Shown here piece after piece: positions 128 to 56,014 of a stretch of 64,000 nucleotides of DNA. The position numbers and the translations under genes are program-made. Below the pieces are notes generated by a model. It saw only the letters and a list, made by a program, of their open reading frames with translations, was not told the DNA's origin and searched no databases. The DNA is from Calditrichota bacterium. Lineage in GTDB: Bacteria; Zhuqueibacterota; Zhuqueibacteria; Zhuqueibacterales; Geothermadaptataceae. The stretch spans positions 1 through 64,000 of the forward strand of contig QQUE01000004.1 of NCBI GenBank assembly GCA_008501765.1, read 5' to 3'. Positions within the stretch are counted from its first letter, which is position 1; every line of letters begins with the position of its first letter.

Positions 128-928
128 TTAGAGTATAGCAATAAACTTAAAGATGAAATTAAAAACACTGATAAAACTCCATTTAAAAGTAATACAATCA
201 TTCTATTACGTAAGGATATTTTTGATTATGTCTTAAAATTTTCTAGAGAACCCGACAAGCTAATCATTCGATCTTATGAAATAGATTGGTCAAAAAACTT
301 GAGTCTGTTAAAACATTTAATTGAGGAAAGATTTAGATTTAGTTTAAATTTAAAAAAAGAAGATCTAATACAAGAAGTATGGAATGAATATTTTGAAATT
401 GCTGAATTTAATCAAGATCCATTCGAAATAATTAAAAAACTGATTGTTGCCCGCCCTCGAGATCTAATTTATATGTTTACAAAAATATTTGAATCTGCCG
501 TTAACAATGACCACATAAAAATAAATTCTGAAGATTTTGATTATGCAATAGAAGCATATTCGCTTTTTTTGAGAAAAAATTTAGTTGCAGAATTAAAAGC
601 CGAATTCCCTGAAATTGAAGAAATATTCTTAAAAATTCAATATGATGCGGTTAATTATGTTATTGAGTATTCAAAATTTATTAATCTGTTAAAGTTATTA
701 AATTATAACGATGAAAAAATCAACAAACTGCTAGAGTCGTTATTTGATAAAAATTATATCATAGCCCTTGATCAGAAAGAAAAAATACCAATCACCAACT
801 TTGAAGTATTTAAGGCAAAAATCCAGAAAAGAAGATTTAAGTTGTTTAATAGAAGTAAAGCATTACTAATTCCAAATCCCCAAGAGTACTATTTAAAAAA
901 TTGGCGAATACAAATAAATAACAATTAA
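128..928 (+). pseudogene. P-loop ATPase gene (Sll1717-like), 3' part, interrupted by the IS
   Basis: The frame is open from directly after the IS end (128) to the stop at 926-928, about 266 codons, with no good start near 128; the first usable start is TTG at 299. The stretch encoded by 128-298 continues the same protein, which implies the IS split a longer gene. The C-terminal half aligns by eye with the intact ATPase at 54539-56014: R(K/E)(D/E)I(F/Y), then I.W....L..LI..R, then RPR(D/E)(L/I)I. The Walker motifs should be upstream, beyond the IS. The gene is markedly AT-rich against the neighbouring parE. The family is a KAP/Sll1717-type P-loop ATPase of unknown role, sometimes found in defence islands. 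The remnant is unlikely to be functional unless an internal start makes a C-terminal fragment. Confidence 0.6.
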
Positions 929-37147: not shown

Positions 37148-38338
37148 ATGAATTTTCAAGAATTAGACTCATTTCACAATTTAGCACGCGAACAGGGGAA
37201 AAAATACCCTAAAAAACGCTTTTTGTACGAAGAAATTATTAAGGAAAGCGGGAAACATTTTACAGGCATCGTCGGATCGCGTGGTATCGGTAAAACAATC
37301 CTGCTCAAGCAATTGGCTGTCGACTTTGAGAATGCCTTTTATATTTCCTTAGATAGCACCTCCGAAATAAACCTATATGAAGCGATAAAATCATTGAATG
37401 AGAATTATGGTTTTAGGCTTTTCCTGTTGGATGAAATCCACTTTTATAAAGATTATAATCGCGATCTGAAAAAAATATTTGATTTTTTAGAGGTAAAAAT
37501 CATTTTTACAAGTTCAGCAGCATTATCGATTCATGAAAGTAGTTATGATTTATCGCGCCGTGTAAATTTGAAAACCTTATATCCTTTTTCATTCCGGGAG
37601 TATCTTTATTTCAAAGAAAATAAAAAACTACCGAGACTGTCATTCAGCGATATCTTAAATAAAAAATGGCAACCCGAACATTTCAGACAATCGGCCCACT
37701 TCAACAACTACGTGCAAGGAGCGCTCTTCCCTTTTGCCCTGGAAGAACCAGATATATTTACCTTGCTCCGAAATATAATACAGAAAATCCTATACCGCGA
37801 TATTCCAGCCATTGCTAATTTACGCGTTGCTGAAATCCAGCATATAGAAAAACTAATTTCATTTATCGGCAAGTCGGCTGTTGATGGCATAAACTACTCT
37901 TCTGTTTCGCGCAATCTCGGTATTACCAAATACAAAGCTGAACATTACATACGCCTGCTGGAAAAAGCATTTGTACTCAACGTCGTTTTTCCATCTGGCA
38001 CAAATGTGCTCAAAGAACCGAAAGTTCTGATGAATTTACCCTTTCGACTACTTTTCCAGTCTTTAGATGAAGCCATTGGCGGCATCCGGGAAGATTTTTT
38101 TATCGAAACGATGAAAATGAATTCTTTTAAGTTCAACTATCTCAAATCGACCCGGGGTACAAAAACTCCAGATTACTTAGTCGATACCGGTGAAAATGAG
38201 CTGGTTGTAGAAATAGGCGGCAAAGGAAAAGGCAGGGAGCAATTTAAGGGGATCGATAAAAAGAAGAGCATTATCTTAACCCATTCTGAAATTATTGATG
38301 GCATAAAACGTCCGTTATTTTTAGCCGGCTTTTTATGA
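37148..38338 (+). CDS. AAA+ ATPase with DUF4143-type C-terminus
   Basis: 396 aa. Walker A GSRGIGKT at 43-50, Walker B RLFLLDEIHFYKD at about 93-104, an Arg-containing sensor region (TSSAALSIHESSYDLSRR). C-terminal half is a winged-helix plus DUF4143-like nuclease-fold end (TPDYLVDTGENELVVEIGGKG), the latter resembling a PD-(D/E)XK core (D, E-I-G-x-K). AT-rich compared with housekeeping genes here. The family is large, poorly characterised and often in accessory DNA. No toxin partner is adjacent. Confidence 0.8.
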   Translation: MNFQELDSFHNLAREQGKKYPKKRFLYEEIIKESGKHFTGIVGSRGIGKTILLKQLAVDFENAFYISLDSTSEINLYEAIKSLNENYGFRLFLLDEIHFYKDYNRDLKKIFDFLEVKIIFTSSAALSIHESSYDLSRRVNLKTLYPFSFREYLYFKENKKLPRLSFSDILNKKWQPEHFRQSAHFNNYVQGALFPFALEEPDIFTLLRNIIQKILYRDIPAIANLRVAEIQHIEKLISFIGKSAVDGINYSSVSRNLGITKYKAEHYIRLLEKAFVLNVVFPSGTNVLKEPKVLMNLPFRLLFQSLDEAIGGIREDFFIETMKMNSFKFNYLKSTRGTKTPDYLVDTGENELVVEIGGKGKGREQFKGIDKKKSIILTHSEIIDGIKRPLFLAGFL

Positions 38339-47498: not shown

Positions 47499-48161
47499 TC
47501 ATCTCGAATTAAATGCATCTATAAAATCATTAAAGCTTTTTATATGATTAGTGTCATTGAACCTTGATCTAATTCGTTGAAAATATTTACGATTATACAG
47601 TACTTTAGGCTTTTTTTTGGTGTAAGTAAGATTTCTATATTTGTCGTTTAGTAAAGCACGAAGATATCGCTCTGCAAATTGAGCCCTATTTAAACCATCA
47701 CTATTTAAATCTGGTAATAGTTCTGGATCATTATCCAAAACATCCCAAATTTTACGATATCTCTTTACTTTTACTAAATTGGGATTTCGCGCAACAATAA
47801 ATTGATTACCTAATCCCCAAGTTTCCAAACAAAAATGTTGTACAATTATTTTATATTCGATATCAAAGTTCAAGTCAGAAATAAAGTTATCTATTTCATT
47901 TTTTTTATCATTATAAGTCATATCCTCTGAATCTATCGCTACGATAAAACGATCAAAGTTATTATTTTCTGATACATCTTTGGCACCAGCGGTAATTACA
48001 TCAAAATAATTTGGGTAACCTCCACCACTAACAATAAATATATTATTCTTTTTCACATCGTTTATATTTTGTACAATCGTAAATTTTGAGTTTAAATATG
48101 GAACCCACCTTGAATAAACTTCTTTTTCTCCAAATCCCTCGACAACTAAATAGATATTCAT
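47499..48161 (-). CDS. TOPRIM-like protein, partner of the ATPase
   Basis: 220 aa, no signal peptide. N-terminus MNIYLVVEGFGEKEVYSRWV puts a Glu (E8) in a V(E)G.GE motif, and FIVAIDSEDM (D77, E79, D80) gives the acidic second motif, together fitting a small TOPRIM nuclease-like core. The rest is basic and aromatic. It overlaps the ATPase gene by 4 bp (ATGA), so the two are translationally coupled. Strikingly AT-rich. Function inferred by analogy with ATPase/TOPRIM anti-phage pairs (PARIS, AbiL, OLD-like), not by recognised homology. Confidence 0.6.
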   Translation of the reverse strand: MNIYLVVEGFGEKEVYSRWVPYLNSKFTIVQNINDVKKNNIFIVSGGGYPNYFDVITAGAKDVSENNNFDRFIVAIDSEDMTYNDKKNEIDNFISDLNFDIEYKIIVQHFCLETWGLGNQFIVARNPNLVKVKRYRKIWDVLDNDPELLPDLNSDGLNRAQFAERYLRALLNDKYRNLTYTKKKPKVLYNRKYFQRIRSRFNDTNHIKSFNDFIDAFNSR

Positions 48162-49279
48162 CGGGCACCTTTGGAGTAAAAGGGATCATTAAGTAATTGA
48201 ATAAATGCCTTTTGTTTTGAGTTTCCAAATTTTTCACTGAATTCGCTGCCTGGTTTTATTCTTACCGTAGAACCTTTTCTATTGAATACCAACCAATTTT
48301 TTATTGGCATACTATTTATTAAATATGGATGATGGGTCGTTATGATAAACTGATTATTCCTTCCATTGTCAATTAAAAACTGTGGAAGAAAATCAATAGC
48401 GTTTATGCCTAACGAGTTTTCATATTCATCAATTATATAAACTGATTCCCCTGGCAAGGTCAATATATCCGTTACAATTAACATAACTTTTTGCATACCT
48501 GAAGAGAGTCCCTGCAAGGGAATCCAATCTCTTACGCCTCTCTCCTTTACCAAAAGGACTGGAACTCTTGCATCGCCCGCTGGAATTAGATCATCCTTAA
48601 AAATATCAACTTTTGTTTCTAAAACAGATGGAAAAATTTGCTTAAAGAACTGTGTAGCAAGGGTATATAATTCAGGAAAAGCTTGCTCAAATATATATAA
48701 CCTTGAACTAACTTTTAACGATTGGTTCCACAATTTTTCTAAATTTCTACTGTCCTTAAAATGGTCTAAGACAGCATTTGGAATTGACTCAAAAGATAAA
48801 GCTTCCTGAAGAACATTTTCATGAAAAACCCTTCTTTGTACGTGTGTGAATATTTTATGAACCGGTTTAATTACTTCTTCTTCTTTTAATAAAGTGATAC
48901 TTGAAACTTTACTGTCAAGCTTAGGTAATTTTTGATTTAAAAAATAAAACTCTTTTTCTCCTCGCTGTATAATTTTTTCTTCTTTAGCTCCATTTTTCCT
49001 TATTAGTGATTCACTTTTTATAACATTTTCAGAATTAACAGCACCTGCTTCGTATTTCCACAAATACTCATTACCCCCTGCTTCAATTACAATTTTCCAC
49101 TTCCCAGTTCTAATTTGTTTTCCTTTAGAGACAAAGTCTGAAAAATTAAATAACGTGTTCAGAAAACGTGTTTTTCCCGTACCGGATGCACCAACCAGAA
49201 GGTTAATCGAACTAAAATTAACTTTGTCAAACTTCCAAGGCTCAGCATCGACACCTGTATATTTGTAGTATGTTATCAT
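48158..49279 (-). CDS. ABC/SMC-type ATPase (AAA_15/21-like)
   Basis: 373 aa. Walker A GASGTGKT at 30-37, a 200-residue insert, ABC signature-like LSSGMQKVM, Walker B ESVYIIDEYENSLG and the H-loop FIITTHHPYLIN. This is the layout of the AAA_15/21 ATPases seen in OLD-type and other anti-phage systems. It is AT-rich like its partner. First gene of the pair; 4-bp overlap with the TOPRIM-like gene. No DNA-binding or methylase gene is adjacent. Confidence 0.82.
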   Translation of the reverse strand: MITYYKYTGVDAEPWKFDKVNFSSINLLVGASGTGKTRFLNTLFNFSDFVSKGKQIRTGKWKIVIEAGGNEYLWKYEAGAVNSENVIKSESLIRKNGAKEEKIIQRGEKEFYFLNQKLPKLDSKVSSITLLKEEEVIKPVHKIFTHVQRRVFHENVLQEALSFESIPNAVLDHFKDSRNLEKLWNQSLKVSSRLYIFEQAFPELYTLATQFFKQIFPSVLETKVDIFKDDLIPAGDARVPVLLVKERGVRDWIPLQGLSSGMQKVMLIVTDILTLPGESVYIIDEYENSLGINAIDFLPQFLIDNGRNNQFIITTHHPYLINSMPIKNWLVFNRKGSTVRIKPGSEFSEKFGNSKQKAFIQLLNDPFYSKGAR

Positions 49280-54538: not shown

Positions 54539-56014
54539 TCAAATGCCCAAATAGGAGCGAAACATCGGGTGCAAATCAAATCGATCAACGATGGCCAAAT
54601 TTAATGACGGTTCCTGATAACAGCCGACAAAACACGTCGTGGCTTCACCATTAATATACACATGCATACACGCCCGAAAAAATCCCGTTCGCCACAGCGT
54701 TTCGATGAAATCATCCGGGGTATTTTGGTCGTTCAGCCAGCTCAATGCCTCCGGACATTTTTTTTCGCCTGCGACGATTTCAAGCCAGTGATTTTCCAGC
54801 GCATTGCGTTCCCAACACAAATTTCCCAGTCTGAAAGTTTCAATCACTTGCTTGAGTCCCGGATACTGATATTTGAACTCAGAAGCAATATCATCTGTGC
54901 GGTATCTGGAATAAAACTTTTCCACTTCTTTAATGGTTTTCCCGGTGATTTTTGTGCGCAGATTGTGTGCTCGCAAACATTCGTTGACAAAAAAGATTAT
55001 CTCGCGGGGTCGAAAAAGAGAGCGTTCGACAATATAATTAAAAGTACTTTTCTGCCCATCTTCCATCTTTTCCTCAAAAATGGAACACCACAGGGTCTGC
55101 GATTTCATATTCTCGGTTTTGAAATTCAAACTTGTGGCTAATGCATGGCGCAGGCGCTGCACGATAAGCTGAAATAAATCATCCGGCGTCCAGCGAATGA
55201 ACTCGATTAAATCCCGTACTTTCTGCGAATCATCGTAGAGCTCGGGGATATTTTCATAAATCTCTTCACGAATAGTTACCATCACATCAATGTTAGGAAA
55301 TTGTTGGTTGATTTGAATGACGGCCTTAAAAAGTCCGGCAATAAATTGCCGTGCGTCATCCGAGGCATCCCAGCCGTTGTCGAGTTCATCAAAGAGAACA
55401 ATGATTTTTCTATTTTTTGATAATTCGAGAATAGCCGGAATGACGGCCTGCAAATCTGCTAATTTATAGAGATTGTCAAGCTCCCGCGTCGGATCGTCAA
55501 AATGTACTCCACTGAGCGACAGCTTGGAAATATTTGAAAATCTTTTTAACGAGCTGAAGAGTATTTCCATCGGCATGGAAAGTTGCAAATCAGCATTCTT
55601 TCGCAGAAAGGTGGAAATTTTAGTCAAGTACCGCTGATTGCTCCGGTGTTTCGTAATGTTGGCGGCGAGTAATTTCATCGCCGTGACCAGGATGACAAAT
55701 TTCCAGCCTGAGTTATAAGCGCCCAGGCGTGCCCATTCGGCGCTGGAATCGAACTGCCGTGAATTTCGTAATAAATCGTAGAGATAGTCGCTGGGTACAA
55801 TTTCTTCGACCAGCGTGCCGTTTTTTCTCTCTTGCTGCGCCAACATTTTAAATATGGCCGATTTACCGCTGCCGCGATTGCCGATGAGTATTTTTGTGTG
55901 CCGCAGGGCCACACGACGATAAATACTCGTTTCAAAAAAATAGGTACTTAATAGATTGTCATGTTCCGCTGCCAGCCCACCGATGTTGAGGTCACGAATC
56001 TGCTCCGGTTTCAT
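54539..56014 (-). CDS. P-loop ATPase, Sll1717/KAP-like
   Basis: 491 aa, soluble. Walker A GNRGSGKS at 45-52, Walker B KIIVLFDELDNGWDA, a following MVTIREEIY segment and the RPREIIFF motif. The start is IRDLNIGGLAAEHDNLL, as in this family (DUF with KAP-type ATPase). The same C-terminal features are found in the truncated gene at 128-928. Role unknown; members are common in accessory and defence-associated DNA. Codon use here is not as AT-rich as the 128-928 copy. Confidence 0.75.
   Translation of the reverse strand: MKPEQIRDLNIGGLAAEHDNLLSTYFFETSIYRRVALRHTKILIGNRGSGKSAIFKMLAQQERKNGTLVEEIVPSDYLYDLLRNSRQFDSSAEWARLGAYNSGWKFVILVTAMKLLAANITKHRSNQRYLTKISTFLRKNADLQLSMPMEILFSSLKRFSNISKLSLSGVHFDDPTRELDNLYKLADLQAVIPAILELSKNRKIIVLFDELDNGWDASDDARQFIAGLFKAVIQINQQFPNIDVMVTIREEIYENIPELYDDSQKVRDLIEFIRWTPDDLFQLIVQRLRHALATSLNFKTENMKSQTLWCSIFEEKMEDGQKSTFNYIVERSLFRPREIIFFVNECLRAHNLRTKITGKTIKEVEKFYSRYRTDDIASEFKYQYPGLKQVIETFRLGNLCWERNALENHWLEIVAGEKKCPEALSWLNDQNTPDDFIETLWRTGFFRACMHVYINGEATTCFVGCYQEPSLNLAIVDRFDLHPMFRSYLGI

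What the first reader, a model, noticed from the sequence alone, without database searches (positions are those of the whole stretch)
47499..49279. AT-rich ATPase/TOPRIM-like pair, candidate anti-phage module
Two coupled genes (ATGA overlap) give an ABC/SMC-type ATPase (Walker A 30-37, LSSGMQ signature, Walker B, H-loop) and a 220-aa protein with VEGxGE and DSED acidic motifs that fit a TOPRIM nuclease-like core. This is the component logic of PARIS, AbiL and OLD-like defence systems, but the small protein was not recognised as any of them. The base composition is much more AT-rich than the flanking envelope genes, which suggests transfer.
Basis: partly seen in the sequence, partly recalled or inferred. 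Interest (0 to 1): 0.72.

Follow-up and report, generated by a model that had tools for sequence, protein, structure and literature searches.

The report
Two-gene ATPase–TOPRIM phage-defence module
Two tightly coupled genes encode an ATP-driven sensor and a small predicted nuclease that travel together between unrelated microbes, including at the slot where P2-type prophages keep anti-phage genes, so they are most likely a little-described relative of known phage-defence pairs such as AbiL.

Summary
Two AT-rich, overlapping genes encode a compact ABC/SMC-like ATPase (373 aa) and a 220-aa protein. The small protein models as β1-E8-α1-β2-α2-β3-D77xE79-α3-β4 (pLDDT 96.9), the order of a TOPRIM core. 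E8, D77, D/E79 and E113 are kept in all 66 relatives aligned. Fold searches alone were not significant, so the TOPRIM call rests on profiles: 93% probability to RloB, 91% to HEC-01B/DUF4276, but only 4% to the AriB-type DUF4435 profile. It falls below the curated Pfam cut-offs of RloB and DUF4276.

In 90 of 93 homologous loci the ATPase lies directly upstream, usually with the same 4-bp overlap. The other three are broken or cut by a contig end. Searched separately, both proteins find the same seven plasmids. The pair is scattered over about 13 phyla, sits on small plasmids and a filamentous-phage-like element, and occupies the gpA–gpQ (old/tin) hotspot of P2-like prophages. Close relatives of the window's genome lack it.

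Best reading: an unnamed sister lineage of AbiL and HEC-01 operons, in which the ATPase restrains and senses and the TOPRIM nuclease shuts the infected cell down. Defence activity, trigger and substrate are untested. New variant of a known kind.

The parts
47499..48161 (-). Small TOPRIM-like protein, 220 aa, predicted nuclease effector
   Evidence: ORF; AlphaFold model pLDDT 96.9; hhalign to RloB 93% and HEC-01B/DUF4276 91%; 66 homologues aligned
48158..49279 (-). ABC/SMC-like ATPase, 373 aa, predicted sensor and regulator
   Evidence: ORF; Pfam AAA_21 1.9e-16; PADLOC AbiLi 2.5e-21; model pLDDT 91.6 and Foldseek to retron PtuA, Rad50 and SMC heads
48158..48161 (-). ATGA stop/start overlap that couples the two genes
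   Evidence: Sequence; the same 4-base overlap in 50 of 90 measured homologous loci
48126..48140 (-). TOPRIM motif 1, E8-G9-x-x-E12, directly after strand 1
   Evidence: Invariant in 66 homologues; model
47925..47933 (-). TOPRIM motif 2, D77-x-[D/E]79, at the end of strand 3
   Evidence: D77 invariant, position 79 D in 35 and E in 31 of 66; model
47805..47840 (-). Third motif Q108-x-x-C111-x-E113-T-W-x-L-G-N119 after strand 4, lines up with RloB NPCFEVW and HEC-01B REYEAWFLGS
49169..49192 (-). Walker A, G30-T37
   Evidence: G30, G35 and K36 invariant in 62 homologues
48491..48508 (-). ABC signature LSSGMQ, residues 258-263
   Evidence: S259 and G261 invariant in 62 homologues
48425..48442 (-). 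Walker B, residues 280-285 (D284, E285), followed by E287-N288-S-L-G291
   Evidence: Invariant in 62 homologues
48329..48334 (-). H-loop, H316-H317, in a T-[S/T]-H-H motif
   Evidence: T314, H316 and H317 invariant in 62 homologues

Best explanation
The pair is a two-gene, mobile anti-phage (abortive-infection type) module. The ABC-type ATPase, probably a head-to-head dimer or higher assembly, holds the small TOPRIM protein inactive and senses an infection cue. On sensing, the TOPRIM protein uses E8, D77, E79 and probably E113 as metal ligands to cut nucleic acid (tRNA or DNA) and halts the infected cell. SHOWN by computation: the obligate operon, conserved catalytic-type residues in both proteins, remote homology to RloB/AbiLii and HEC-01B, horizontal spread, and location on plasmids and in the P2 gpA-gpQ hotspot. 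INFERRED: complex formation, sensing, nuclease activity, substrate and phage defence. It is a separate lineage alongside AbiL and HEC-01, not PARIS.
For: Obligate pairing: ATPase within 200 bp upstream in 90 of 93 loci, 50 with the same 4-base overlap; the three exceptions are a broken pair (L016), a contig end (L042) and a split small gene (L058). tblastn with either protein alone finds the same seven plasmid records among 72,556. TOPRIM-type effector: model order and acidic positions; RloB matched by 46/66 and DUF4276 by 43/66 members at E<=0.1; AbiLii 52/66, HEC-01B 31/66; hhalign 93% and 91% with E8, D77/79 and E113 in register. ATPase: PADLOC AbiLi matched by 62/62 members; Foldseek to retron/Septu PtuA and Rad50/SMC heads, E about 1e-12 to 1e-10. 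Mobile or defence setting: small plasmids, a Zot/capsid/integrase element in Methylovorus, beside a XamI-type restriction-modification locus in Planktothrix, and between replication gene A and portal Q in several P2-like prophages, including an annotated E. coli one, the locus that Rousset et al. describe as an anti-phage hotspot (PMC9122126). Transfer: AT-rich, absent from 80 of 81 other same-phylum genomes and broken in the one that has it, 100/98 clade with Nitrospirota and Nitrospinota, next to a synteny break in a same-genus relative. Precedent: AAA partners neutralise TOPRIM_OLD toxins of the RloB class (PMC10440598); AriB TOPRIM cleaves tRNA (PMC12409363).
Against: Foldseek with the small protein gave no significant hit in PDB or BFVD (best E 0.018-0.024; RloB-like protein second at E 0.023 in BFVD). 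The immediate neighbourhood in the window and in many relatives is housekeeping, with only sporadic defence genes nearby. No activity data exist for this lineage. The reference profiles used for hhalign held only 3-4 sequences each.
Confidence: 0.68

Rival explanations
1. A plain toxin-antitoxin or plasmid-stabilisation module: the TOPRIM protein is a toxin kept in check by the ATPase, and retention of the element rather than phage sensing is the selected function.
For: Found on small plasmids of 10-15 kb in Acinetobacter, Proteus and Methylovorus. AAA:TOPRIM_OLD pairs behave as toxin and antitoxin in E. coli (PMC10440598). F. nucleatum AbiLii is toxic (PMC3985639).
Against: Many copies are chromosomal with no plasmid context. 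P2-like prophages carry it at the anti-phage hotspot. No antitoxicity of AbiLi was seen in PMC3985639, and PARIS deletions are not toxic (PMC9122126).
Confidence: 0.15
2. It is simply a divergent AbiL (AbiLi + RloB/AbiLii) or HEC-01 (ATPase + DUF4276) system, not a lineage of its own.
For: Same gene order and domain logic in AbiL-like and HEC-01-like reference operons; best PADLOC hits are AbiLi and AbiLii; hhalign above 90% to both.
Against: The window protein scores 12.5 bits to RloB (cut-off 31.5) and 14.4 to DUF4276 (cut-off 30.2). The family profile gives reference RloB and HEC-01B proteins only 3-7 bits. It is about equally far from both.
Confidence: 0.12
3. A DNA-repair or housekeeping pair of the RecF-RecR type (SMC-like ATPase plus TOPRIM protein).
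For: Weak RecF match; Foldseek hits to Rad50 and SMC heads; housekeeping neighbours in the window.
Against: Found in 2 of 99 related genomes including its own; spread over about 13 phyla on plasmids and prophages. A housekeeping pair would be inherited vertically.
Confidence: 0.04

Closest known systems
AbiL (AbiLi ATPase + AbiLii/RloB), Lactococcus plasmid abortive infection system
   Same: Two-gene operon, ATPase upstream, small TOPRIM-like protein with EGxxTE, DxD and a C/xE-W motif; best PADLOC hits AbiLi and AbiLii; hhalign 93%
   Different: Below the RloB curated cut-off; ATPase shorter (373 aa against 424-450 aa in reference loci); different third motif (CxETWxLGN against NPCFEVWLxLH)
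HEC-01 (HEC-01A ATPase + HEC-01B/DUF4276), a PADLOC candidate defence system
   Same: ATPase upstream of a TOPRIM-like partner of about 200 aa, near-identical coupling, WFLGS/WxLGN motif; hhalign 91%; ATPase profile scores the four reference HEC-01A proteins at 18-43 bits
   Different: Below the DUF4276 cut-off; the window protein has no HEC-01B hit at E<=1
PARIS (AriA + AriB)
   Same: ATPase plus a separate TOPRIM effector; AriA is the best PDB sequence relative of the ATPase profile (E 4.9e-9); shares the P2/P4 mobile-element niche
   Different: Effector unrelated at profile level (DUF4435, 3.9%); compact ATPase of 373 aa against 464 aa for AriA
OLD, Gabija GajA and retron ATPase-TOPRIM
   Same: ABC ATPase + TOPRIM combination; P2 old sits at the same gpA-gpQ locus (PMC9122126)
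   Different: Those are single fused proteins; here they are two genes
WonAB and PD-T4-4
   Same: ABC ATPase paired with a nuclease in two-gene operons; WonAB is carried by a prophage (PMC12137116)
   Different: Their nucleases are PD-(D/E)xK type, not TOPRIM

Membership tests
AbiL | Bicistronic ATPase then RloB-type protein | tested here: met
   Order and coupling as in four RloB reference loci
AbiL | Effector over the RloB (PF13707) curated cut-off | tested here: not met
   12.5 bits against 31.5; family-level remote homology only
AbiL | Phage abortive infection | not testable with these tools
   Needs a phage challenge
HEC-01 | ATPase of HEC-01A type upstream | tested here: met
   HEC-01A models hit at 1.3e-10, 62/62 members
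HEC-01 | HEC-01B / DUF4276 partner | tested here: not met
   DUF4276 14.4 bits against 30.2; no HEC-01B hit for the window protein; 31/66 relatives hit weakly
PARIS | AriB/DUF4435-type effector | tested here: not met
   hhalign 3.9%; no DUF4435 hit
PARIS | AriA-type ATPase | tested here: inconclusive
   AriA models 7.5e-21, but these are broad AAA models that many ATPases match
TOPRIM superfamily | β1-E-α-β2-α-β3-DxD(E)-α-β4 core with conserved acidic residues | tested here: met
   Model pLDDT 96.9; E8, D77 and D/E79 invariant
TOPRIM superfamily | Significant structural match to a solved TOPRIM domain | tested here: not met
   No Foldseek hit at E<=0.001 in PDB or BFVD; RloB-like protein and primases only as weak hits
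OLD/Gabija | ATPase and TOPRIM in one polypeptide | tested here: not met
   Two ORFs in the window and in the homologous loci
ABC/SMC-type ATPase | Walker A, LSSG-type signature, Walker B and H-loop | tested here: met
   Invariant in 62 homologues; AAA_21 over cut-off

The most novel reading that the evidence does not exclude
A so far unnamed, phylum-crossing immune system whose compact ABC ATPase senses a phage cue different from those of PARIS and AbiL, and whose TOPRIM effector, with the added invariant Q-x-x-C-x-E-T-W-x-L-G-N element, cuts a substrate not yet known for TOPRIM effectors.
Probability: 0.25. Interest if true: 0.65.

Novelty: new variant of a known kind. Interest (0 to 1): 0.48.

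Why it matters
It links AbiL (RloB) and HEC-01 (DUF4276) through a third lineage with the same operon logic. This supports a broad class of split ABC-ATPase/TOPRIM immune modules, of which, as far as found here, only PARIS has a known trigger and substrate. The E. coli P2-like copy and the small plasmid copies make the class directly testable in laboratory strains, and the catalytic residues to mutate are clear.

Tried and rejected
1) PARIS membership: rejected on the effector profile. 2) Foldseek proof of TOPRIM: not obtained. 3) PDB sequence hits for the small protein: none, even with the family profile. 4) A conserved third gene: Pfam and PADLOC tallies over 129 flanking proteins show no recurrent partner. 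5) Defence islands as the general rule: only scattered PtuA, MADS and PIN hits, so not claimed; no background set was scanned. 6) Transposon ends, tRNA target or terminator at the locus: none found. 8) Whole-genome composition of the host: the genome was not available as a file, so composition was judged against the window's genes. 9) HEC-01B search in viral contigs found nothing. 10) Housekeeping RecF/RecR-like pair: rejected on distribution.

Full report
WHAT IS THERE. Two genes on the minus strand, 48158-49279 (373 aa) and 47499-48161 (220 aa), overlap by ATGA. They are the second- and third-most AT-rich of the window's 42 ORFs of 150 aa or more (GC 0.287 for the small gene and 0.331 for the ATPase gene, against a mean of 0.427) and lie between a haem-binding-domain gene and a PD40/amidohydrolase gene.

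THE SMALL PROTEIN. No database names it: Pfam gives DUF4276 at 14.4 bits and RloB at 12.5 bits, both under the curated cut-offs of 30.2 and 31.5. Homologues were collected from plasmids, a phage record, viral contigs and genomes and 66 sequences, the window's included, were aligned. E8, G9, E12, Y16, W19, G48, D77, I106, Q108, C111, E113, Y166 and Y180 are invariant, and position 79 is D or E throughout. The AlphaFold model (pLDDT 96.9, pTM 0.91) runs β3-7, helix 10-23, a short strand 28-30, β40-45, helix 51-65, β71-77, helix 83-96, β103-108, with E8 after the first long strand, D77/E79 at the end of the third and C111/E113 after the fourth. This is the order expected of a TOPRIM core (established knowledge of the fold). 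Foldseek did not confirm it at E<=0.001 in PDB or BFVD; the second BFVD hit is an RloB-like phage protein (E 0.023), and DnaG-type primases, a topoisomerase and a TOPRIM protein appear lower down. The stronger support is from profiles: individual relatives match RloB (46/66, best 8.6e-6), DUF4276 (43/66, best 4.8e-7), DUF3226 (6), OLD-like_TOPRIM (2) and Toprim (1) at E<=0.1; hhalign gives 93% to RloB and 91% to HEC-01B/DUF4276 with the acidic residues in register, but 3.9% to DUF4435, the AriB-type domain.

THE ATPASE. Pfam AAA_21 1.9e-16; PADLOC AbiLi 2.5e-21 and AriA 7.5e-21. All 62 aligned sequences keep G30, G35, K36, S259, G261, D284, E285, H316 and H317. The model (pLDDT 91.6) resembles retron/Septu PtuA, Rad50 and SMC heads. 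By sequence profile the best solved relative is AriA (E 4.9e-9).

OBLIGATE PAIR. In 90 of 93 loci the ATPase lies within 200 bases upstream, 50 times with exactly the 4-base overlap; the other three are a broken pair, a contig end and a split small gene. The 93 loci include some near-copies. Searching 72,556 plasmids with each protein separately returns the same seven records. No third gene recurs in the flanks.

DISTRIBUTION AND TRANSFER. The family is spread over about 13 named phyla. The tree puts the window copy in a 100/98 clade with Nitrospirota and Nitrospinota, while 80 of 81 other genomes of its own phylum lack it and the remaining one carries a broken copy. In a same-genus genome the gene block up to the haem-binding gene is collinear, the amidohydrolase gene lies elsewhere and no module is found, so the module sits next to a synteny break.

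SETTING. Relatives sit on 10-15 kb plasmids of Acinetobacter, Proteus and Methylovorus (the last with Zot, a capsid gene and an integrase), on larger Nostoc, Planktothrix and Bernardetia plasmids, and in Planktothrix beside a XamI-type restriction-modification locus. In P2-like prophages it lies between the replication gene A and the portal gene Q, also in an annotated E. coli chromosome (1 of 5,426 genomes). Rousset et al. describe exactly this interval as a hotspot of anti-phage systems and the home of P2 old and tin (PMC9122126).

MECHANISM. By analogy: in PARIS the AriA ATPase senses and the AriB TOPRIM effector cuts tRNA (PMC12409363); in AAA:TOPRIM_OLD pairs, including an RloB-class one, the ATPase neutralises a toxic TOPRIM protein, and the authors speculate that these are abortive-infection systems (PMC10440598); F. 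nucleatum AbiLii is toxic in E. coli, though AbiLi did not neutralise it in that study (PMC3985639). I therefore propose ATPase restraint and sensing, then TOPRIM cleavage and shutdown of the infected cell. The anatomy, coupling and setting are shown; activity, trigger, substrate and complex are inferred.

CLASSIFICATION. AbiL-like (ATPase 424-450 aa + RloB) and HEC-01-like (ATPase about 400 aa + DUF4276) reference operons have the same order, but the family profile scores their small proteins at only 3-7 bits. The window pair fails the domain cut-offs of both and the PARIS effector test. It is filed as a new variant of the split ABC-ATPase/TOPRIM kind, probably sister to AbiL and HEC-01.

LIMITS. 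Reference profiles for the three known effectors were small (3-4 sequences). No complex model, no activity data, and no background set for defence enrichment among neighbours. Preprints were not searchable, so an existing name for this lineage cannot be excluded.

Noticed in passing
window 37148-38338 (+): AAA_14/DUF4143 ATPase of 396 aa matching the PADLOC candidate PDC-S01 (1.9e-26); PDC-S01 is a very common single-gene candidate and may be generic.
   Followed up: partly
window 54539-56014 (-): P-loop protein of 491 aa, over the cut-off for Pfam ORC-CDC6-like and with a weak nSTAND3 hit, and a partial match to PADLOC PDC-M28C (2.7e-12); possible second defence gene within 6 kb of the module.
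   Followed up: partly
window 299-928 (+): Most AT-rich ORF of the window (GC 0.254, GC3 0.210), 209 aa, no Pfam or PADLOC match.
   Followed up: partly
L004 1082-2949 and 6688-8554: The 10-kb Proteus terrae plasmid carries the module twice; the two small proteins share one accession, and the second ATPase is split into two ORFs.
   Followed up: no
L002 1-9816: Methylovorus plasmid pMsip02 looks like an integrative filamentous-phage-like element (Zot, capsid protein, integrase) carrying the module as cargo.
   Followed up: no
L016 / L096: The only same-phylum homologue (a KSB1-division genome) has two stops in the small gene and a truncated ATPase.
   Followed up: partly
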